Assembly: GCF_013128195.2 (NCBI RefSeq) | Contig: NZ_CP053452.2 | Location: 9,424,001-9,488,000, forward strand | Direction of reading: 5' to 3' | Length of the DNA: 64,000 nucleotides | Origin: Frigoriglobus tundricola | GTDB taxonomy: Bacteria > Planctomycetota > Planctomycetia > Gemmatales > Gemmataceae | In this document: positions 7,371 through 62,485 of the stretch, in pieces | Layout: each line of letters opens with the position of its first letter | Position numbering within the stretch: position 1 is the first letter of the stretch | Notes under the pieces: generated by a model | Told to the model about the DNA's origin: nothing | Seen by the model: the letters and a program-made list of their open reading frames with translations, nothing else | Database searches by the model: none | Position numbers and translations under genes: made by a program

Positions 7371-7417
7371 CCGGCCGATGGGACCGCTTCCTTGCGGGGA
7401 GCGGTCCCATCGGCCGG
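7371..7417. terminator. Perfect 18-bp stem-loop between convergent hisN-like gene and pepA
   Basis: An uninterrupted 18-bp inverted repeat (7371-7388 with 7400-7417, starting CCGGCCGATGGG) with an 11-nt loop fills the gap between two convergent genes. It ends 2 nt before the pepA stop. It has no U-tract but is ideally placed as a bidirectional terminator. Confidence 0.7.
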
Positions 7418-39061: not shown

Positions 39062-41587
39062 CTACCGCTTGAGCGAGTACAGCACCACGGCGCTCGCGAT
39101 CTTGAGCGCGCTCTCCTTGTCGTGGCCGAGGCAGTCGGCGGCCTTGTGGCCCTCGATCGCACAGCCGATGTCGTAGCGGCTGTACACCACCACCCACCGC
39201 CCGTCGATCTTGATGCCCTCGAGGAGCACCGGGTAGGACCGCAGTTCCGCCTCCGGGCCGCTGCCGTCGGGTTTCTCGCGGCGGCACTTGACGGTCCGCA
39301 AGTCGATCCCGGCCTCGCGGGCGATCTCGAAGAACCGGTCGTTCGGCGGGATCGTGACCAGCTTCTGACCCCACATCTTCTCCATCGCGTCGCGGAACGA
39401 CTTGTCGAACTCCTTCCACAGCTTGATCTCGTTGCACGCGGCGTCCGCGAGCAGGAGCCCGCCGGTCTGGAGGTTCGCCTTCACGTTGTCCGCCGAGTCC
39501 CCGTCGAACACGACGGGCCGGCGCCCGTGCAGGTACATGAACTTATACTTTGCCAGCCGGGTGTCACCGGGGGCCAGCACTTCCGTCGTTTTCGCCACGT
39601 CGAGCTTGGCGTTTTGGGCGAGATAGCCCATCAGGTTGCGAAGCGCGTCGGCCGCGGGCGGCGGTTGGGCGCCCTCGTCGCTGACATACTTGAGTTGCAG
39701 CGCCCGGAACTTGCTCCGCGCGATCCCGGTCTCGGCGCCGTTCACGAGGATCGTCTTGGTCAGTTTCGGCTTCGGCAGTTCCAACCCGGTCGCGTAGGCG
39801 ATGATGTTGCGGGCGAGGCAAAACGCCTTTTGTCCGCGGTTCTTCGGGTCGCGGCCGTCGGCCGGCATGAACCGCCGCTCTTCCCAATACCCGGCGAGTG
39901 GGCTGGGGCTGAACACCGCGACCGTGCGGCACCCGCGGTCCAGGTACATGAGGTCCGGGAAGTCGGCCGGGCTGACGCCGGGGAACGTGCGCCAGATGGC
40001 GTGTTCGGGCGGCATCTTCCGCAACGTGTTGCCCGGGAACAGCCGCGCGAGCAGTTTCTCGAACGAGGCGGCGAACTCCTTGTCCCCGCAGCACGCCTCG
40101 CCGATGAGGAACCCGCCCTCCTCCACGTACCGCTTGAGGATCCGCTCCTCCGCCGAGAGCAGTTCCGTGCCGCGGCCGACGAACGGCATCGCCCCGTGGC
40201 CGTTCAGATACACGACCGGCGACTGGAGCAAAAGGCCCACCTCGGAATCGATCCGCGTGTTGTCATCGGCCAGCCCCTGGAGCCGCGGGTCGTACACCTG
40301 CCACGACAACGGGACGTTGTCGAACAGCTCGCGTGCGGCGAACTCAACAATGTTTCGGCAGTCGTTGTGCTTCCGGTTCCAGTCGGGCCGGGCGGTCTGG
40401 ACCCCGTTTTCGTCCAACTCCTGAAGGACGGTGCGGTCATTGGCCGCGCCCGGCCGGAAGCGGCCCCAGGCGAATTTGGTGACGAGCACCGGGGTCCGGC
40501 CCTTCGACAGGAAGAGGACCGCGAACGACGTGGTGATGACCGGCTGGCCGGCGTCGAGCCCGCCCCGCTTCTCTCCGTCGCGGTAAACGAACGAGCCGTC
40601 GCCGTCCTGCATGCGGATGAGCCGCTCGCACCCCTCGCGGTACCAGTCGATCCGGCCGATGAACCGCTGGCCGGAGAGGCGCCCGAGCCGCTCGATGCCG
40701 TAGTAGTTGTAGAAGTACGATTTGCCGTCCAGGAAGTTGAAGTTCGCCCCGACCCACAGCATCCCCCGGGCGAGCGCCGAGTTCTCCGTGTACACGCCGC
40801 AGTTGGCGGCCACCCCGGTGGCGTCGTTGAGCCCCTGTTCGCTCTTGTCCAGCCCCATACCGGCGATGATTAGTCCGCACGCCCCGCCGACCGTCATGGT
40901 GAAGCTCGGGTTCCGATCGCCCGCGTTGTGGTACGTCCAGAACCCGGCCTTGTTGTTGGCCGGGTCCTGGTGCTGGGTGCGGTTATAGTAATCGAGGATG
41001 TCGGACCAGAGCTGGTCGTCCACCTTCACGCCGGCGGTCTTGGCCGCGTACAGGCCGAGCAGCGCGTACTGCGTGTTGGAGTTGTCGGCGATCGCGTTGG
41101 CCGGGTAGCTCCAGCCGTCGAGCTGTCCGCTCCTGCGGATCACGTTCTTTTTGAACCACTCCACGTTTTCGGCGATCTTGGGCAGGTCCTTCGGTTGTCG
41201 GGCCTCGGCGAACACCATCGTCTGGAGCGCGACGACGTACGTCTTGTCGGGTTTGACGGCCCGCAGGTAGTCCAACGCCTTCGCGACGGCCGGGTCGTCG
41301 GGCTTCAGGCCGGCGTTGAGTAGCGCGAGGGTGGCGAGCGCCGTGACCCCGCCCTTCAGCCCCGCGATCTCGCCGAGGACGATGCCCTCCCAGTCGCCGT
41401 CCCGCTTCTGGGTCTTCTTGAGGTACCGCACGCCCTTGTCGATGGAGTTCTTCACCTTCTCCACCAGCTCGGCGTCCTGCGTGCCCTTGGGCGGCGCGCC
41501 CGCTGGCTGCGCGGCGGTCGGCGTGCCGGACAGGAGCGTCAGCCCGACACCCAGCGCCAGAGCGGCGGCCAGCAGAGAGCGGATCAC
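39062..41587 (-). CDS. Secreted prenyltransferase-like barrel / DUF4159 protein
   Basis: The 841-residue protein starts at a GTG (41587) with GGAGG correctly spaced; an upstream ATG would translate the repeat array. The N-terminus is a signal peptide (MIRSLLAAALALGVGLTLLSG). Residues about 40-400 match the alpha/alpha barrel of terpenoid cyclases/prenyltransferases (KGVRYLKKTQKRDGDWEG, GGVTALATLALLNAGLKPDDPAVAKAL). Two DUF4159-type domains follow: VVYLNGHGAMPFV...RYVEEGGFLIGEACCG and YMYLHGRRPVVFD-like ...NLQTGGLLLADAACN. It ends VVLYSLKR. No isoprenoid-cyclase DxDD motif was seen, so the barrel may act as a binding scaffold. Confidence 0.87.
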   Translation of the reverse strand: MIRSLLAAALALGVGLTLLSGTPTAAQPAGAPPKGTQDAELVEKVKNSIDKGVRYLKKTQKRDGDWEGIVLGEIAGLKGGVTALATLALLNAGLKPDDPAVAKALDYLRAVKPDKTYVVALQTMVFAEARQPKDLPKIAENVEWFKKNVIRRSGQLDGWSYPANAIADNSNTQYALLGLYAAKTAGVKVDDQLWSDILDYYNRTQHQDPANNKAGFWTYHNAGDRNPSFTMTVGGACGLIIAGMGLDKSEQGLNDATGVAANCGVYTENSALARGMLWVGANFNFLDGKSYFYNYYGIERLGRLSGQRFIGRIDWYREGCERLIRMQDGDGSFVYRDGEKRGGLDAGQPVITTSFAVLFLSKGRTPVLVTKFAWGRFRPGAANDRTVLQELDENGVQTARPDWNRKHNDCRNIVEFAARELFDNVPLSWQVYDPRLQGLADDNTRIDSEVGLLLQSPVVYLNGHGAMPFVGRGTELLSAEERILKRYVEEGGFLIGEACCGDKEFAASFEKLLARLFPGNTLRKMPPEHAIWRTFPGVSPADFPDLMYLDRGCRTVAVFSPSPLAGYWEERRFMPADGRDPKNRGQKAFCLARNIIAYATGLELPKPKLTKTILVNGAETGIARSKFRALQLKYVSDEGAQPPPAADALRNLMGYLAQNAKLDVAKTTEVLAPGDTRLAKYKFMYLHGRRPVVFDGDSADNVKANLQTGGLLLADAACNEIKLWKEFDKSFRDAMEKMWGQKLVTIPPNDRFFEIAREAGIDLRTVKCRREKPDGSGPEAELRSYPVLLEGIKIDGRWVVVYSRYDIGCAIEGHKAADCLGHDKESALKIASAVVLYSLKR

Positions 41588-41620
41588 GTGGAACCTCCGG
41601 GTGAAGAAGCGAGCCCCAGA

Positions 41621-41848
41621 ACCTACCCCCCGCCCCCCAGCCCTGAAGGGAAGGGGGAGGAAGACGAAGAACCCACCCCCCGGCCCTCTCCCTTCAGAGA
41701 GGGGGAGGAAGACCCCCCGGAGTTCCGTCACTTCCGGAGAGTCGGAGGAGGCAGCACGCGCGTTAACCCCCTCCCTTCAGGGAGGGGGCCGGGGGGGGGT
41801 TCTTCACGACGCAGCCCGGTCCCTTGGGAAAGGGGTTGGGGAGGGTCA
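41621..41848. repeat. Array of ACCTACCCC-type GC-rich palindromes
   Basis: Four hairpin units of C-rich/G-rich arms around CTGAAGGG or CTTCAG cores (about 41621-41661, 41670-41710, 41764-41801 and 41815-41845). The first starts with the family edge ACCTACCCCCC; the third is in the opposite orientation. It fills the 274-nt gap between the DUF4159 gene start and the purL stop. Confidence 0.65.
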
Positions 41849-41861
41849 ACCGATTATACAC

Positions 41862-44747
41862 TCACCACCGCAGCGGTTTCTGCCACGCCTCTTTGAGTGT
41901 TGCCAGCTTAACCCAGACCAGCCACTCGCCGTTGGCGCCGGCGATCCGCAAACGGGTGTCGGAGAGGGTGACGCCCACTCGCGCAACCGGCAAACCCGCA
42001 AATGTCGCTTCAAACGCCGATGCGTCCGCCGGCTTCACTTCGACAAGGAACCGTGTTGGCGACTCGCTGAACAGCTTCGCTTCATCGGACAGCTCGCCCG
42101 GTAGCCCCGTGATGTCGGCGCCGATCCCGCCGGCAAAGCACATCTCGGCCGCGGCAACCGCGAGGCCGCCCTCACTCAGGTCGTGGCACGCCCGCACCAG
42201 GCCCCCCGAGATCGCCTTGTGGACCGCCGCGAACAGCTTCGGGGCGGTGGCGAGATCGACCCGCGGCACGTGTCCCCCCGTCCGGCCGGTGACGAGGTGG
42301 AAGTGCGAGCCGCCGAGTTCGTCCTTGGTGGTGCCGACCAGGTACAGCGCGTTGCCCGGCTCCTTCAGATCCATCGTGACGCAGCGGCGCACATCGGGCA
42401 CGCGGCCGAGCGCGGTGACCAACAGCGTGTGAGGGATGTTCAGCCGCTCGCCGCCCTGCGTCGCATAAGTGTTGTTCAGGCTGTCCTTGCCGCTGATGAA
42501 CGGCGTGCCGAACGCGACCGCCACGTCCCGACACGCCTCCGCGGTGCGGACCAGCGCGCCGAGAACCTGGGGGTCGTGAATGTTGCCCCAGCAGAAGTTG
42601 TCGAGGATCGCGACCCGCTTCGGATCGGCGCCGACCGCGACCACGTTTCGAACGGCTTCGTCGATGGCCGCGGCGGCCATCCAGTAGGGATCGAGGTCCG
42701 CGTATTGGGGGTTGATCCCGCAGCCGACCGCGGCGCCGGTCCACGAGCCGAGGACCGGCATTACAACCGCGGCGTCGGACGGGCCGTCGTTCATGACGCC
42801 GACGAGCGGCTTCACCGCGCTGCCGCCCTGCACTTCGTGGTCGTACTGGCGGATCACCCATTCCTTGGAGCTGACGGAATAGTGGCCCAGGATCGCCAGG
42901 AGTGCGTCGTGGGCCGCCTCCGCCTCCAGTCCCCGCGCGGGGGCGTGCGGAGCGGGCGCCGGGGCGCGCCACTCGGCGCTCTTGATCACGGTGGGCCGCC
43001 CGTCGTGCAGGAAGTGCATGTCGAGGTCGGCAACGACGTTACCCTCGTAAGACAGCTTCAGCCGGCCCGAAGCCTCGAACGTGCCCAGCACGGCCGCTTC
43101 GACGTCTTCGGCCTCGCACAATTTCAGTAGGGCGGGCCACTTCGCCGGGGGGACCGAGAGCACCATGCGCTCTTGCGATTCGCTGATCCAGATTTCGGTA
43201 TAGCTCAGCCCCTCGTATTTGAGCGGCGCCTGATCGAGCATGACGGTCGCGCCGAGGTCCGCGGCCATCTCCCCGACGGCCGAGCTGAAGCCCCCGGCGC
43301 CGCAATCGGTGATCGCCGAGAACAGCCCGCGGTCGCGGGCCTGGATGATCACGTCCTGAACCTTCTTCTCGGTGATCGCGTTGCCGATCTGCACCGCGCC
43401 GCCGCTCACCGTTTCCGACTCGTGCGTGAGTTCGAGGCTGGAGAACGTGGCCCCGTGAATACCGTCGCGCCCGGTGCGCCCGCCGACCGCCACGATCAGG
43501 TCGCCGTCGTACACCTGCTTGAACGCCTTGTCCTTCGGGATGATCCCGACCGTACCGCAGAACACGAGCGGGTTCGCCAGGTAGCGCTCGTCGAACAGCA
43601 CGGCCCCGTTCACCGTGGGGATGCCCATGCGGTTGCCGTAGTCGCGGACGCCGGCCACGACCCCCTGCATCACCCGCCGCGGGTGCAGCACGCCGGCGGG
43701 CAGCTTGTTGGGGTCGTAGTCCGGCGGGGCGAAGCAGAACACGTCCGTGTTGCACACCGGCTTCGCGCCGAGGCCGGTCCCGAGCAGGTCGCGAATCACG
43801 CCGCCCAGACCCGTGTTCGCCCCGCCGTAGGGCTCGATGGCCGACGGGTGGTTGTGCGTCTCCACCTTGATGCAGATGTGAAAGTTGTCGTCGAACGTCA
43901 CGATGCCGGCGTTGTCGGCGAACACGCTCACGCACCAGTCGTTCGCGCCGAGGGCCGCGCGGATCGTTTGCGTCGCCCCGAACACGGTCTCCTTCAGCAG
44001 GTTCTTGTAGGTGCGGGTTTCACCGGTGCCGTGGTCGGTGAGGGTGATGGTCCCCTTGAGCGTCTTGTGGGAACAGTGTTCGGACCAGGTCTGCGCGACG
44101 GTTTCGAGCTCGGCGTCGGTCGGGTCGCGGCCCAGATCGCGGAAATGGGCCTGCACCTGCTGCATCTCGGCCAGCGACAGGGCGAGCGTGTTCTCCTTGC
44201 TCAGCCGCACCAGCCCGTCGTCGTTGAGTTCGCGGATCGGCACGCGGACCAGTTTAAACTGGTACGGTGAGCCGACCGCGAGGTGAGCCGCCTTGACCGG
44301 CCCGACGACGATCTGCTCGATGGCATCGTTCGCGAGGACCTTGCGGAACAGTACGTCGCGATCGAGCGAGGGGATTTCCGGCGGCCCGAAGTAGCGGCGG
44401 AAGGTGCGCACCGCGGTGGCGGGGGCGCCGAGCAGCCGGAGCGTGTCCAGAACGGTCTGCGCGACCGGGTCCATCACGCCGGGCTTTAACAGCACCGTGT
44501 ACGAGTGCGCCGCGCGCGTCCCGACCGGCGCGAAGGTGCCCGCGTCCACGAGCGGATCGAGGAGCACCTCACCCGTGAGGCGCTCGCGGTGCTCTTCGGT
44601 CAGGTCGCCCTCGATGAGGAACCCGCGGGCGCTGGCGGTGATGAGGTCCCCGCCGCGCTCGGCGTGCGTCAGCAAGTCGAACTCGTCGCACACCCGCTCC
44701 CGCTCGCCGTCCCGACCCAGCGGTTTGATCTCAAGTTCCCAGAGCAT
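41862..44747 (-). CDS. purL: Phosphoribosylformylglycinamidine synthase PurL with PurS-like N-terminal domain
   Basis: The 961-residue enzyme makes FGAM from FGAR in purine synthesis. The ATP-binding catalytic core is complete: TWSEHCSHKTLKG, NNAGIVTFDD-like, KVETHNHPSAIEPYGGANTGLGGVIRD, the second PurL repeat from about 570, FISGKDSLNN and LSEGGLAVAAAEM. Residues about 75-170 resemble PurS (SYTVLLKPGVMDPVAQTVLDTLRLLG), so the PurS function appears fused, as in some planctomycetes and archaea. No glutaminase (PurQ) domain is present. The gene overlaps the upstream tyrA stop by 17 nt, so the two are probably co-translated. Confidence 0.94.
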   Translation of the reverse strand: MLWELEIKPLGRDGERERVCDEFDLLTHAERGGDLITASARGFLIEGDLTEEHRERLTGEVLLDPLVDAGTFAPVGTRAAHSYTVLLKPGVMDPVAQTVLDTLRLLGAPATAVRTFRRYFGPPEIPSLDRDVLFRKVLANDAIEQIVVGPVKAAHLAVGSPYQFKLVRVPIRELNDDGLVRLSKENTLALSLAEMQQVQAHFRDLGRDPTDAELETVAQTWSEHCSHKTLKGTITLTDHGTGETRTYKNLLKETVFGATQTIRAALGANDWCVSVFADNAGIVTFDDNFHICIKVETHNHPSAIEPYGGANTGLGGVIRDLLGTGLGAKPVCNTDVFCFAPPDYDPNKLPAGVLHPRRVMQGVVAGVRDYGNRMGIPTVNGAVLFDERYLANPLVFCGTVGIIPKDKAFKQVYDGDLIVAVGGRTGRDGIHGATFSSLELTHESETVSGGAVQIGNAITEKKVQDVIIQARDRGLFSAITDCGAGGFSSAVGEMAADLGATVMLDQAPLKYEGLSYTEIWISESQERMVLSVPPAKWPALLKLCEAEDVEAAVLGTFEASGRLKLSYEGNVVADLDMHFLHDGRPTVIKSAEWRAPAPAPHAPARGLEAEAAHDALLAILGHYSVSSKEWVIRQYDHEVQGGSAVKPLVGVMNDGPSDAAVVMPVLGSWTGAAVGCGINPQYADLDPYWMAAAAIDEAVRNVVAVGADPKRVAILDNFCWGNIHDPQVLGALVRTAEACRDVAVAFGTPFISGKDSLNNTYATQGGERLNIPHTLLVTALGRVPDVRRCVTMDLKEPGNALYLVGTTKDELGGSHFHLVTGRTGGHVPRVDLATAPKLFAAVHKAISGGLVRACHDLSEGGLAVAAAEMCFAGGIGADITGLPGELSDEAKLFSESPTRFLVEVKPADASAFEATFAGLPVARVGVTLSDTRLRIAGANGEWLVWVKLATLKEAWQKPLRW

Positions 44748-45576
44748 CGCGCACCTGTTTCCCTTCGGTTAACCACCGCACGAGGCCGGCGCCGTCCCCG
44801 GCCGCCAGCAGCGTTCGGAATTCGGCGAGGCGGGCGCTGAACGCGTCCAGCGCGGCGAGTGTGGCACTGCGGTTCGCCTCGAATATTGCGGCCCACAACT
44901 GGGGGTCGCCGGCCGCGATGCGGGTCACATCGCGGAACCCGCCGCCGGTGATCCGGAGCCAGTCCGAGTGCGTCACGCCCGCGACCGCTGCCGCGACGGC
45001 GTGGGGCATGTGGCTGGTGAACGCCAGCGTCCGGTCGTGTTCCTCGGCGTTCATCAGCACCACGTGGGACCCGAGCGCCTCCCAGAACCGCCCGACCCGC
45101 ACCGTGCGCTCCCAGTCCGCCCCGAACGGGCTCATCACGACGGCCGTGGCGCGGTTCAGGAACAGATCGGCGCGGCCGTGCTCCGGCCCGGACTTCTCGG
45201 ACCCGGCCACCGGGTGCGCCGGCACGAACTCCACACGCGGGGGCAGTTTCCCGCGCACCTCGGCAACGATCCGGGCCTTCGTACTCCCGGCGTCCGTAAT
45301 CAGAGTGCCCGGTTGCACATGCGCCGCGGCCGCGACGACCACGCCCGCGACGTGATCGACCGGCGTACACACGACGACCAGCCCGGCCCCGGCCACTCCG
45401 GCCGCGAGGTCCGTACCGCCCGCGTCCAGCGCGCCGAGCCGGACGGCCGTCTCGATCGTGGCCGGGTCGCGGTCCACGCCGATCACACGGCCCGCCACGC
45501 CCCGCGCTTTCGCCGCGAGGCCGACCGAGCCGCCGATGAGGCCGACGCCGATGATGGTGATCTGGTCGAACAGCAT
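44731..45576 (-). CDS. tyrA: Prephenate dehydrogenase
   Basis: The 281-residue NAD-dependent enzyme converts prephenate to 4-hydroxyphenylpyruvate in tyrosine synthesis. It has the Rossmann motif IIGVGLIGGSVGLAAKARG, the cofactor discriminating Asp in VIGVDRDP, CTPVDHV, ITDAGSTKARI and the family signature FVPAHPVAGSEKSGPEHG, then HDRTLAFTSHMPHAVAAA. The start at 45576 is preferred because a further ATG 13 codons upstream has no matching sequence. It overlaps purL by 17 nt downstream, tying aromatic and purine synthesis genes into one transcript. Confidence 0.95.
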   Translation of the reverse strand: MLFDQITIIGVGLIGGSVGLAAKARGVAGRVIGVDRDPATIETAVRLGALDAGGTDLAAGVAGAGLVVVCTPVDHVAGVVVAAAAHVQPGTLITDAGSTKARIVAEVRGKLPPRVEFVPAHPVAGSEKSGPEHGRADLFLNRATAVVMSPFGADWERTVRVGRFWEALGSHVVLMNAEEHDRTLAFTSHMPHAVAAAVAGVTHSDWLRITGGGFRDVTRIAAGDPQLWAAIFEANRSATLAALDAFSARLAEFRTLLAAGDGAGLVRWLTEGKQVRDALGT

Positions 45577-45623
45577 TCCGAGATTATAAGGAGATTCCCC
45601 ACGGGCACAGGGCATCCCACAGG

Positions 45624-45650
45624 AAGCATGGGGCGGAAGCCCCGTGCTTT
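45624..45650 (+). terminator. GGAA-tetraloop hairpin with T-rich tail
   Basis: AAGCATGGGGC, a GGAA loop and GCCCCGTGCTT (one G-T pair), then TTTCTTCTT. It lies between divergent tyrA and the DUF1501 gene, upstream of the latter. It looks like a terminator on the plus strand but nothing transcribes into it from that side, so it may be a leader or a repeat. Confidence 0.4.
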
Positions 45651-45690
45651 CTTCTTGCCCACACCGGTCGCGCTCGCGGATAACAGATGC

Positions 45691-47181
45691 ATGTCTCGCG
45701 CTGCCGCTGCCCTCCTAAACTGCCCCTCGCGCCGCGACTGGCTCCGCATCGGCGTGCCCGCCGCGTTCGGTGCGGCGTTTCCGTGCGCCCGAGCCGACCC
45801 GGTGCCGGACGGCGCGGGTTTCGGACGGGCGAAGTCCGTCGTTGTGGTCTTCACGAGCGGCGGGCAGAGCCAACTCGACACCTGGGACCCGAAGCCGGAC
45901 GCTCCGGAAGAAGTGCGCGGCGCCTTCCGCAGCGTCCGGACGAGCAACCCGGCGCTGCGGGTTTGCGAACACCTGCCACGCATGGCGGCGCTCGCGAACC
46001 GCTTCGCGGTGCTCCGATCGGTGACACACGACGACCTCGATCACGGGTCGGCGTGCTACCTCGCGCTCACCGGTCAGCACCACCCGCGAAAGTCGTCCAA
46101 CCCGCCGCCGCGGCCGGCCGATTTCCCCGCGCTGGGCGCGGTCCTGAAGCGTGTGCGGCCGGCCAAACACTTTCCGCACACCGCGGTACACGTGAATGGT
46201 CCGCTGCTCGCGCCGGTTGAAGTGTCGCCGGGCCAGTACGGCGGGTTCCTCGGGCACGCCTACGAGCCGGCCGAACTCGGTAACGTCGCCACGACGGACC
46301 GGCTCGTCGCGGCGCTCGATCTACCCTCCGACGTGCCCCAGAGCCGGCTCCGGGGGCGCCGCGACTTACTCGCGCGGCTCGATCCCGGTGCGAGCGCCGA
46401 CCCGCTCAGCCAGAAGGCGTTCGAGTTGGTCAACGCGCCGCGTGTGCGGGCCGCGCTCGACCTTGATCGCGAGCCGGAAAAGCTCCGCGACCGCTACGGC
46501 CGCCACCGCTCGGGCCAAGCGTGCCTCATGGCCCGCCGACTGGTGGAAGCCGGGGTGCCCTGGGTCACGGTGTTCTTCAACCACGGGATTCGCGGACAAG
46601 ACGCCCACCCGGACGACACCGACGCTTACGGCTGGGACACGCACAACGACATCTTCGACGCGCTCAAACAGCACCTCTTGCCGCGGTTCGATCACAGCGT
46701 CTCGGCGCTGCTGGAAGACCTCGGCCACCGGGGGCTGCTCGAAAGCACGCTCGTGGTGGTGATGGGCGAGTTCGGCCGCGCGCCGCTCGTCGCGCGGGAG
46801 AAGAACTTCGCCGGCTCGTCGCCCGGTCGCAAGCACTGGGGGGCGTGCTACTCCGTGGTCCTGGCCGGTGCGGGCGTCGCGCCCGGAGCGGTGTACGGTC
46901 GGTCCGACCGGATCGCGGCCTACCCCCAAGCGGACCCGATTACGCCTGGTGATCTGGCGGCGACGATGTTCTACGCACTCGGCATCCCGCCAGACGCGCA
47001 CTACACAGACGCCACCGACCGGCCGTATCGGATCGTGACGGGCGCGCCGGTCACCAAACTTTTTCTTGAGACTTTGGCGTATGCATTTCCCTGGGACCGC
47101 GGCCGTCTCGGCCGCATCGCTAAGAGCGGCCGAGACGGCCGCGGTCCCGGGAACTCGTCCCGGCGATTCGCTCTAACCTGA
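45691..47181 (+). CDS. DUF1501 secreted protein (sulfatase-like fold)
   Basis: The 496-residue protein begins at 45691 with a Tat-like N-terminus (SRRDWLRIGVPAAFGAAF). Motifs of DUF1501 are VVVFTSGGQSQLDTWDPKPDAPEEVRGAF, HLPRMAALANRFAVLRSVTHDDLDHGSACY, GWDTHNDIF, VVVMGEFGRAPLV and DLAATMFYALGI. The family is alkaline-phosphatase-like and abundant in planctomycetes; its substrate is not known. The last about 25 residues (from WDRGRLGRIAKSGRDGRG) are read through a perfect palindrome of the GGGACCGCGG family, so the ancestral C-terminus has probably been replaced. Confidence 0.9.
   Translation: MSRAAAALLNCPSRRDWLRIGVPAAFGAAFPCARADPVPDGAGFGRAKSVVVVFTSGGQSQLDTWDPKPDAPEEVRGAFRSVRTSNPALRVCEHLPRMAALANRFAVLRSVTHDDLDHGSACYLALTGQHHPRKSSNPPPRPADFPALGAVLKRVRPAKHFPHTAVHVNGPLLAPVEVSPGQYGGFLGHAYEPAELGNVATTDRLVAALDLPSDVPQSRLRGRRDLLARLDPGASADPLSQKAFELVNAPRVRAALDLDREPEKLRDRYGRHRSGQACLMARRLVEAGVPWVTVFFNHGIRGQDAHPDDTDAYGWDTHNDIFDALKQHLLPRFDHSVSALLEDLGHRGLLESTLVVVMGEFGRAPLVAREKNFAGSSPGRKHWGACYSVVLAGAGVAPGAVYGRSDRIAAYPQADPITPGDLAATMFYALGIPPDAHYTDATDRPYRIVTGAPVTKLFLETLAYAFPWDRGRLGRIAKSGRDGRGPGNSSRRFALT
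47091..47150. repeat. GGGACCGCGG palindrome, copy A (inside the DUF1501 3-prime end)
   Basis: A perfect 23-bp inverted repeat (47093-47115 with 47126-47148; GGGACCGCGGCCGTCTCGGC...) with a 10-nt loop. It shares its first 25 positions with the arm at 61604-61632 except for three changes. It is translated within the DUF1501 reading frame. Confidence 0.85.
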
Positions 47182-47198
47182 TTCACCCGAGATTCTCG

Positions 47199-47864
47199 AT
47201 GCGCGTGCTCTTTTCCGTTGCCCTCTTCGCCATTGCCGCCCCCGCCCTTGCCGACGATACGGGCAGCTTCACGCCGTTGTTCGACGGCAAGACCCTCGAC
47301 GGCTGGACATTCATCGTGAAACCCGACAAGGACGGCAAGAAGGCCGATCCGAAGGGCACCTGGAGCGTCGCGGACGGGTACATCCGCTGCACGGGTAAGC
47401 CCAACGGCTGCATGGTGACCCGGGAAGAGTACGGCGACTACGTGCTGAAGGTGAAGTGGCGCTTTCCGGCTGATGGCAAGGGCGGCAACAGCGGGGTGCT
47501 GTTGCACGTCCAGGACGAGAAATATTGGCCGACGTCGATCGAAGCACAAATGCTGACCGGCCGGGCCGGCGACCTGTTTCTCACCAACCCGCCGGGCGCG
47601 AAGCTCGACGTGGACCCGTCGCGCCGGAACCCGAAGGTGGAGCGCCAGTTCTTCCGCCTGGAAACGAAAGAACCGGTGGAGAAGAAACTCGGCGAGTGGA
47701 ACGAGTACGAGATCACCTGCAAGGGCGGCGCCGTGAACTTGGTCATCAACGGCGTGAAGGTGAACGAGGGCACGAACGGCAACCTGTCGAAGGGCCGGAT
47801 CGCGCTCCAGTCCGAGGGCACCGAGATCCACTTCAAAGACGTTGTCATCAAAAAGCTAAAGTGA
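47199..47864 (+). CDS. Secreted DUF1080 protein (3-keto-disaccharide hydrolase-like)
   Basis: The 221-residue exported jelly-roll protein has a signal peptide (MRVLFSVALFAIAAPALA), then the DUF1080 start motif FTPLFDGKTLDGW. It also carries WSVADGYIRCTGKPNGCMVTREEYGDYVLKVKWRF, NSGVLLHVQ, and the end motif GRIALQSEGTEIHFKDVVIKKL. Structures of the family are concanavalin-like glucanases; several relatives act on 3-keto-glucosides. It follows DUF1501 by 17 nt, so the pair is probably one transcript. Confidence 0.9.
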   Translation: MRVLFSVALFAIAAPALADDTGSFTPLFDGKTLDGWTFIVKPDKDGKKADPKGTWSVADGYIRCTGKPNGCMVTREEYGDYVLKVKWRFPADGKGGNSGVLLHVQDEKYWPTSIEAQMLTGRAGDLFLTNPPGAKLDVDPSRRNPKVERQFFRLETKEPVEKKLGEWNEYEITCKGGAVNLVINGVKVNEGTNGNLSKGRIALQSEGTEIHFKDVVIKKLK

Positions 47865-61574: not shown

Positions 61575-61603
61575 CCTCTCATACCCAGTCCTGTTGATTG
61601 CTC

Positions 61604-61718
61604 CCCCTGGGACCGCGGGCGTCCCGCCCGCTGCGTTGCGGATCATATCGCTATACGAGATACGCCCCCGCGATTTCGCGGGCTTAGCAAGCGGGCGGGA
61701 CGCCCGCGGTCCCAGGGG
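61604..61718. repeat. GGGACCGCGG palindrome, copy B
   Basis: A perfect 29-bp inverted repeat (61604-61632 with 61690-61718; CCCCTGGGACCGCGGGCGTC...) around a 57-nt loop that itself contains a CCCGCGATTTCGCGGG hairpin. Its arm differs from copy A at 3 of 25 compared positions. It lies 30 nt after the EF-hand stop. Confidence 0.85.
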
Positions 61719-62325
61719 CAGTAACCAACGCGATCCCGTATCACTCATCGCTGGCTGGGCTCGACCGCCCAACACATGTTCGCTTCGATTTCAATTCTTG
61801 GACCGGCACTTCACCCACCAGCGACCGGATACTCACGTTTGCGGTGAACCTCCTCATCGCGCCGCCCATGAATCGCCAGTTCCGTTAGGCCGGCTTCGCA
61901 TCTCGCGAATCTTGATTGAGAAGAGCTGACCCATCCCGGTTAGGAATTCGATCAGCAACCTCCAACAGTTCCTCTCGCAAGAGTGTGTTGCGCACAGAAT
62001 TTGCTGAGGCACTGAAACCTGAATTTCAGAAGGCAGAAACACACAGATGCCTGGCCCTCGAAAAGCCCGACCACGAAGGATCTGAGGTCCCGTGCTTTCC
62101 CCGAGCCGATTTCACTGTTTTTCGGCTCACACGGCGTGCGGCGCGGAGTCGGTCTACGAACCCACTGTCCGTCTCGCACCTGCGGACGACTGGCTCCCAG
62201 ACGACCAGACTGGCCCGGTCGCGATCTTGAATCCAGGTCTCTTCTGCGGGTTCTGATCCGCTCGCGGGTCATCGCGCCGTGAGTTGATTCGGGTGTAACC
62301 GGTCGGGTTCGCCTCGAAAAAAGAC
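61719..62325. other. 607-nt non-coding-looking region with lower GC
   Basis: The segment is clearly less GC-rich than the rest. No open frame shows a protein family, and the open stretches lack ribosome sites. It is bracketed by two palindromic elements, which suggests an insertion-prone area or an eroded gene. No tRNA-like fold was recognised. Confidence 0.45.
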
Positions 62326-62485
62326 AAGGGAAGGCGAATTCACCACGGAGTCACAGAGGGCACCGAGAGCAGAACAAGCCGAGAGCAAGAGGGCCTTTCC
62401 CACGGCATTCTCGGCTTCGATCTTCCTCAGTCTTGTTCTGCTCTCGGTGCCCTCTGTGACTCCGTGGTGAATCCGCCTTCCCTTC
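62326..62485. repeat. CACAGAG-type palindromic repeat, copy 2
   Basis: A palindrome of about 160 nt. Left arm: AAGGCGAATTCACCACGGAG then TCACAGAGGGCACCGAGAGC. Right arm: GCTCTCGGTGCCCTCTGTGA then CTCCGTGGTGAATCCGCCTT. Its centre (CACGGCATTCTCGGCTTCGA...) matches copy 1 at 36511-36660 over most positions, and its arms are better paired than in copy 1. It sits about 70 nt before the response-regulator start. Confidence 0.8.

What the first reader, a model, noticed from the sequence alone, without database searches (positions are those of the whole stretch)
47091..47181. Perfect 23-bp palindrome translated as the end of a DUF1501 protein
The GGGACCGCGG element lies inside the reading frame and codes for about 20 residues plus the following tail (WDRGRLGRIAKSGRDGRG). 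A second copy with a 29-bp stem lies at 61604-61718 in a gene gap. Such palindromes give little constraint on protein, suggesting recent capture as coding sequence.
Basis: seen in the sequence. Interest (0 to 1): 0.5.

Follow-up and report, generated by a model that had tools for sequence, protein, structure and literature searches.

The report
Mobile DNA hairpin read as protein tail
A small mobile DNA hairpin lies just behind a gene in a Gemmata-like bacterium, and because that gene has lost its stop signal the hairpin can be read as a 38-residue protein tail; this is a neat example of a known kind of accident.

Summary
A perfect 23-bp inverted repeat lies in the last codons of a DUF1501 ORF, and a relative with 29-bp arms lies at 61604-61718. 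Each arm is a REP (GGGAC head plus a 7-bp hairpin with a 3-nt loop) and the inverted pair is a REPIN; I extracted 68 related elements from the genome pieces fetched. In Singulisphaera sp. GP187 and 5 of 19 genus genomes a REP-associated tyrosine transposase (RAYT) gene stands beside this REP; the window's genome has no RAYT of that clade. All 14 genus orthologs end at window residue 458-459 and none has the REP behind its stop. The window frame runs 38 codons further because a stop at codon 459-461 was lost by about one base, and the element in the spacer became readable. So "captured as coding sequence" is partly right: stop loss was the trigger, it may be an assembly error, and translation is not shown. 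Intragenic REPs and such C-terminal fusions are in print. Less expected: the RAYT partner, a near-identical core in several phyla, and a long subfamily flanked by TCA/TGA direct repeats.

The parts
45691..47181 (+). DUF1501 ORF, 496 aa as read; conserved part ends at residue 458 (47064)
   Evidence: PF07394 covers residues 47-456
47067..47069 (+). TGA one base out of frame, probable former stop (alternative: TAG to GAG at 47068-47070)
   Evidence: sequence against ortholog ends TKLFx*; inference
47093..47115 (+). left REP: GGGAC head and GCGGCCG-TCT-CGGCCGC hairpin
47126..47148 (-). right REP, inverted copy of the left one
47149..47175 (-). right outer arm, related to outer arms of other short elements (end approximate)
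   Evidence: z 6.3; the left outer arm 47070-47092 was not recognisable (z 0.2)
47070..47181 (.). inferred extent of inserted DNA, about 112 nt
   Evidence: spacer 129 nt from the TGA to the next gene against 17 nt from the present stop and 9-20 nt in 9 of 13 genus orthologs; inference
47199..47864 (+). downstream gene, PF06439 3-keto-disaccharide hydrolase
61582..61740 (.). second element, long class, 159 bp with outer arms; core 61609-61713
61579..61581 (.). left TCA direct repeat of the second element
61741..61743 (.). right TCA direct repeat of the second element

Best explanation
The palindrome is a REPIN-type miniature mobile element: two REPs in head-out inverted orientation, probably inside a decayed element of about 110 bp, lying in the short spacer behind a DUF1501 gene. 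Shown: it is one of many copies in this genome, copies lie mostly behind genes, the same spacer in relatives lacks it, and in relatives a RAYT gene stands beside the same REP. Inferred: a RAYT moved it as single-stranded DNA, cutting at the conserved CT next to the GGGAC head, and this genome has since lost that RAYT or never kept it. Inferred: the stop at codon 459-461 was then lost by about one base, so that ribosomes would read through the element to TGA 47179-47181 and add 38 residues outside the DUF1501 domain, most likely with neutral effect.
For: 105 exact half-sites against 1 control; 62 inverted pairs and 6 singles extracted; 44 tandem, 19 convergent, 1 divergent, 2 inside a predicted gene, 2 undetermined. 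RAYT beside the REP in L160 and in L190-L194; exact cores on both sides in 5 of these 6, the sixth cut by a contig end with one near-match; 0 of 18 more distant transposase loci have an exact core; four of the proteins are NF047646 above cut-off. 14 of 14 genus orthologs end at residue 458-459 and lack the REP behind the stop. The spacer excess of about 112 nt fits a short element with both outer arms, 113 nt (sum mine).
Against: No RAYT of this clade in the window's genome, best match 38% identity, and genus copy number does not follow RAYT presence (88 in G000 without it, 2 in G016 with it). The left outer arm of the window copy is unrecognisable. The head is GGGAC, not the GTAG or CGTC of published families. 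The long subfamily has 3-bp direct repeats, which fit a different kind of transposase. My gene caller is home-made.
Confidence: 0.75

Rival explanations
1. The read-through is an assembly error: one base missing in the T run at 47060-47064. The real gene would end KLFS and the element would be an ordinary extragenic REPIN.
For: One more T gives the ending KLFS that orthologs L045, L046, L047 and L051 have; homopolymer runs are prone to error (general knowledge).
Against: Conserved neighbouring genes between 39068 and 47861 match relatives in single unbroken frames, so errors are not frequent here. A TAG to GAG substitution explains the loss as well.
Confidence: 0.25
2. The element is a TIR miniature element moved by a DDE-type transposase with a 3-bp target duplication, and the REP core is only its inner part; RAYT linkage in relatives would be a separate use of the core.
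For: In the long class 9 of 34 copies have identical TCA or TGA 3-mers exactly 27 nt outside the core on both sides (permuted mean 2.2, maximum 7 in 2000), outer arms begin TAC.
Against: The short class, to which the window copy belongs, shows 2 of 22, not above permutation. In 20 elements of G015 the flanks beyond the first bases are not conserved. HUH transposition beside a fixed target could leave similar direct repeats (recalled). No transposase gene with these ends was seen, but none was searched for.
Confidence: 0.2
3. The hairpin is kept by selection as a 3' mRNA stabiliser or translation brake of the DUF1501-DUF1080 pair.
For: Very stable RNA hairpin, placement behind genes; REPs within 15 nt of a stop stall ribosomes in E. 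coli (PMC12306157, passages).
Against: None of 13 syntenic orthologs with the next gene in view has the REP; distance from the former stop is 23 nt; copies lie behind unrelated genes.
Confidence: 0.07
4. The long C-terminus is ancestral and was lost in relatives.
For: None found.
Against: All 14 genus orthologs and the 7 more distant ones printed end at or near the same place; Pfam DUF1501 ends at residue 456.
Confidence: 0.02

Closest known systems
REPINs and RAYTs (PMC3116915; passages read)
   Same: Two inverted REPs around a spacer, many copies, mostly extragenic, same REP beside a RAYT gene.
   Different: Here the RAYT is missing from the genome with the copies, the head is GGGAC, and a long subfamily has outer arms and 3-bp direct repeats.
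Intragenic REPs and REPs that supply stop codons (PMC3733652; abstract and passages read)
   Same: REPs behind genes, some inside ORFs coding 20-30 residues, REP ends giving a stop codon.
   Different: Those families are tagged GTAG or CGTC; this core ends in neither.
RU-1 fused to the 3' end of E. carotovora ECA3499 (PMC2759123; passages read)
   Same: A small mobile repeat removed the normal stop and lengthened the protein beyond its conserved domain.
   Different: Different repeat and host; here the stop was lost beside the repeat rather than clearly by the fusion.
Group 3 TnpA-REP systems (PMC8266576; passages read)
   Same: Perfect palindrome with a 3-nt loop directly behind the head in the S. 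maltophilia example; cutting at CT, and CT is conserved beside this head.
   Different: GTAG head there; no biochemistry exists for this clade in what I read.

Membership tests
REPIN / REP | short palindrome with a conserved head, repeated and mainly extragenic | tested here: met
REPIN / REP | two REPs in inverted orientation as the common unit | tested here: met
   62 of 68 extracted elements are inverted pairs
REPIN / REP | same REP beside a RAYT gene | tested here: met
   met in Singulisphaera sp. GP187 and 5 genus genomes; not met in the window's own genome
REPIN / REP | mobilised by the RAYT | not testable with these tools
   needs biochemistry or excision reads
GTAG-tagged REP | unpaired GTAG at one end | tested here: not met
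   head is GGGAC
CGTC-tagged REP | unpaired CGTC at one end | tested here: not met
   CGTC occurs inside the stem and loop, not as an unpaired end
TIR miniature element with target duplication | direct repeats flanking terminal inverted repeats | tested here: inconclusive
   long class 9 of 34 including the copy at 61579-61743; short class, with the copy in question, 2 of 22, not above permutation

The most novel reading that the evidence does not exclude
A REP core shared nearly letter for letter by several phyla is moved by one RAYT clade. In this genome it has become the inner part of a larger element that inserts beside or into TGA/TCA, often the host stop codon, so that insertion leaves the protein intact and later loss of the stop makes the element a ready-made C-terminal tail.
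Probability: 0.2. Interest if true: 0.5.

Novelty: new member of a known kind. Interest (0 to 1): 0.3.

Why it matters
It gives a likely transposase partner for a widespread REP core in Gemmata-like planctomycetes, and a case with syntenic sites without the element that shows how such a hairpin can come to be read as protein. The read-through itself has close precedents in print.

Tried and rejected
Own-genome transposases as mobiliser: seven PF01797 genes and three NF047646 matches, two above cut-off (two of the three are the same genes as). At up to 2 mismatches the only match to the 15-mer in the seven loci is a lone one about 1 kb from the L032 gene. The borders that I looked at carry other palindromes.

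Loss scar of the RAYT in the window's genome: the gap that holds the RAYT in G015 (698 nt) and G002 (705 nt) is 138 nt of unrelated sequence in G000 and 12-66 nt in 7 others. In G016 a RAYT lies before the same gene but the contig begins too near to see the other neighbour. Five of 16 loci were not scored because my start pattern missed them. The names DUF1553 and DUF1501 for these two neighbours are recalled, not scanned.

Spread in the phylum: with the exact 15-mer 49 of 294 genomes match, but outside G000 only G056 exceeds 3 sites (9 against 1 for the control), and 27 genomes have a match of the reversed control (counted by eye).

Symmetry of flanks: columns 4-12 are more alike within a copy than between copies in four of five sets, but not in the short class of the window copy. 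Not pursued.

My gene caller is a home-made codon model; it starts the DUF1501 gene at 45754 rather than 45691. My RAYT query L160:1668-2309 began before the third REP, so its first residues are REP-coded.

Full report
Observation. The palindrome is real: perfect 23-bp arms at 47093-47115 and 47126-47148 around a 10-nt loop, and 29-bp arms at 61604-61632 and 61690-61718 around a 57-nt loop; in 20 dinucleotide shuffles of the window the longest arm was 14. The frame that ends at 47181 runs through the first one. As RNA, 47064-47184 folds at -75.8 kcal/mol, z -8.2.

The unit. Each arm has a hairpin of its own, GCGGCCG-TCT-CGGCCGC (elsewhere GCGGGCG-TCC-CGCCCGC), behind a GGGAC head, and CCCT stands directly before the head. 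That is REP architecture. In the window's genome G000 (9.86 Mb, 2 contigs) GGGACCGCGGSCGTC has 105 exact sites against 1 for the reversed pattern. From pieces around the listed sites and the window I extracted 68 elements, 62 inverted pairs and 6 singles. One search listed only the first places, so a few sites outside these pieces were not examined. Pairs fall into a short class (22 of 47-59 nt), a long class (34 of 91-109 nt) and 6 larger ones.

Placement. By a home-made codon-model gene caller 44 lie between tandem genes, 19 between convergent genes, 1 between divergent genes, 2 inside a predicted gene (the window copy is one) and 2 are undetermined; the window's own gaps over 30 nt are 22 tandem, 5 convergent, 6 divergent. 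Of 83 gene ends that face an element, 11 have the stop codon exactly 27 nt from the core, with 2 each at 26 and 28; 9 of the 11 stops are TGA. This fits outer arms of about 27-30 nt, which in the long class begin with TGA or TCA and TAC. In the long class 9 of 34 copies have identical 3-mers (TCA or TGA) 27 nt outside the core on both sides, permuted mean 2.2, maximum 7 of 2000; the short class has 2 of 22 (11.75% of permutations reach that) and the 6 larger ones 0. Outer arms of the short class are more alike than shuffled ones in 20 of 44 cases against 3 of 44 for sequence further out; of the window copy the right arm is related (z 6.3), the left is not (z 0.2).

Transposase link. A screen of their ORFs with three own-genome transposases hit two stretches: L136, with an IS200-like gene far from its REPs, and L160 of Singulisphaera sp. 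GP187, where the gene has three direct REPs before it and one inverted REP after it. Relatives of that protein at 50-58% identity occur in 5 of 19 genus genomes. Of the six loci, L160, L190, L191, L192 and L193 have exact cores on both sides (in L192 the exact ones point the same way and inverted near-matches stand beside them), and L194, cut by a contig end, has a near-match on its open side; none of 18 more distant matches has an exact core. Four of the proteins scanned are NF047646, REP-associated tyrosine transposase, above cut-off. In G015 and G002 the unit fills the same gap between two genes (698 and 705 nt), in G016 it lies before the same downstream gene, and 8 genomes have 12-138 nt there, G000 138. 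G000 has no RAYT of this clade, best match 38% identity. Copies per genus genome, both strands: G015 217, G000 88, G014 49, G007 36, G006 31, G018 29, G011 23, G002 18, G003 17, G013 12, G008 11, G010 10, G001 4, G016 2, G004 1, four with 0; the reversed control is 0 in all 19. Copy number therefore does not follow RAYT presence. Twenty elements of G015 show the same two size classes and CCT before the head in most, but no conserved outer arms.

Reach. Of 154 core hits in the 119 stretches 151 keep the two free G/C positions complementary, where about half would by chance. Several hits per genome, with inverted partners, occur in MAGs titled Thermoanaerobaculia, Pyrinomonadaceae, Blastocatellia and Verrucomicrobiales, in Reyranella and in a Thermoflexus MAG, besides planctomycetes; single hits elsewhere may be chance, and four hits in a Hyphomicrobiales MAG (2 of 4 complementary) look like it (placement in phyla is recalled). 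Within a sample of its own phylum the exact 15-mer is rare.

The protein end. Pfam DUF1501 covers residues 47-456. All 14 genus orthologs (G012, G014, G016 and G017 have only weaker paralogs) end TKLFx or alike at window residue 458-459, and the 7 more distant ones printed end alike. The window reads AAA CTT TTT CTT GAG, with a TGA one base out of frame at 47067-47069. One missing base, or TAG to GAG at 47068-47070, explains the lost stop. In 13 of the 14 the next gene is in view: the spacer is 9-20 nt in 9 and 58, 60, 114 and 896 nt in the rest; none of the 14 has this REP behind the stop, though the 114-nt spacer holds a different hairpin. In the window the next gene is 129 nt from the TGA and 17 nt from the present stop. 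The excess of 112 nt is close to a short element with both outer arms (113), so probably the whole tail is element DNA; this is inference, as the left arm is unrecognisable. Conserved neighbours from 39068 to 47861 are unbroken against five relatives, which speaks against, but does not exclude, an assembly error in the T run.

Mechanism. Most likely a RAYT cut and moved single-stranded REPIN DNA, as published TnpA-REP enzymes cut at CT beside their REP (PMC8266576, passages); the element landed behind the gene without harm, the stop was lost later, and the frame now runs to TGA 47179-47181. Insertion by a RAYT, the order of events, translation and neutrality are inferred.

Known or new. REPINs with RAYTs (PMC3116915, passages), REPs behind and inside genes and supplying stops (PMC3733652, abstract and passages), REPs near stops as translation brakes (PMC12306157, passages) and a small mobile repeat that removed a stop at a 3' end (PMC2759123, passages) are in print. 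In the library searched, no paper holds GGGACCGCGGGCG, none holds Gemmata with 'repetitive extragenic palindromic'; 'REPIN' with 'Planctomycet' lists 7 papers and 'REP-associated tyrosine transposase' with 'Planctomycet' 2, of which I read only passages of PMC3733652. I file this as a new member of a known kind.

Noticed in passing
window 62338-62472: Longest inverted repeat of the window: 41-nt perfect arms (ATTCACCACGGAGTCACAGAGG...) with 53 nt between.
   Followed up: no
window 7371-7417: Perfect 18-nt inverted repeat CCGGCCGATGGGACCGCT with an 11-nt loop.
   Followed up: no
L187, L188, L036, L034, L035 (own genome): Y1 transposase genes bordered by other palindromic repeats, each of its own kind, which suggests several REP families with their own partners.
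   Followed up: partly
L250, L244, L259, L015 (own genome): Elements whose middle holds a palindrome of another repeat family, like a REPIN inside a REPIN (sequences).
   Followed up: no
L046 (G003), spacer behind the orthologous DUF1501 gene: A different hairpin (CTTGGCGAACCCCGCCCGC...) lies in the same spacer of another species.
   Followed up: no
G000 and G015 elements: Flanks next to the core are more symmetric within a copy than between copies in four of five sets, perhaps by palindrome correction.
   Followed up: partly
L218 (own genome), 138-nt gap before the DUF1501-like gene: The gap holds a repeat-like stretch ending ATCTGTGTAATCTGTGGATGA in place of the RAYT of G015 and G002.
   Followed up: no
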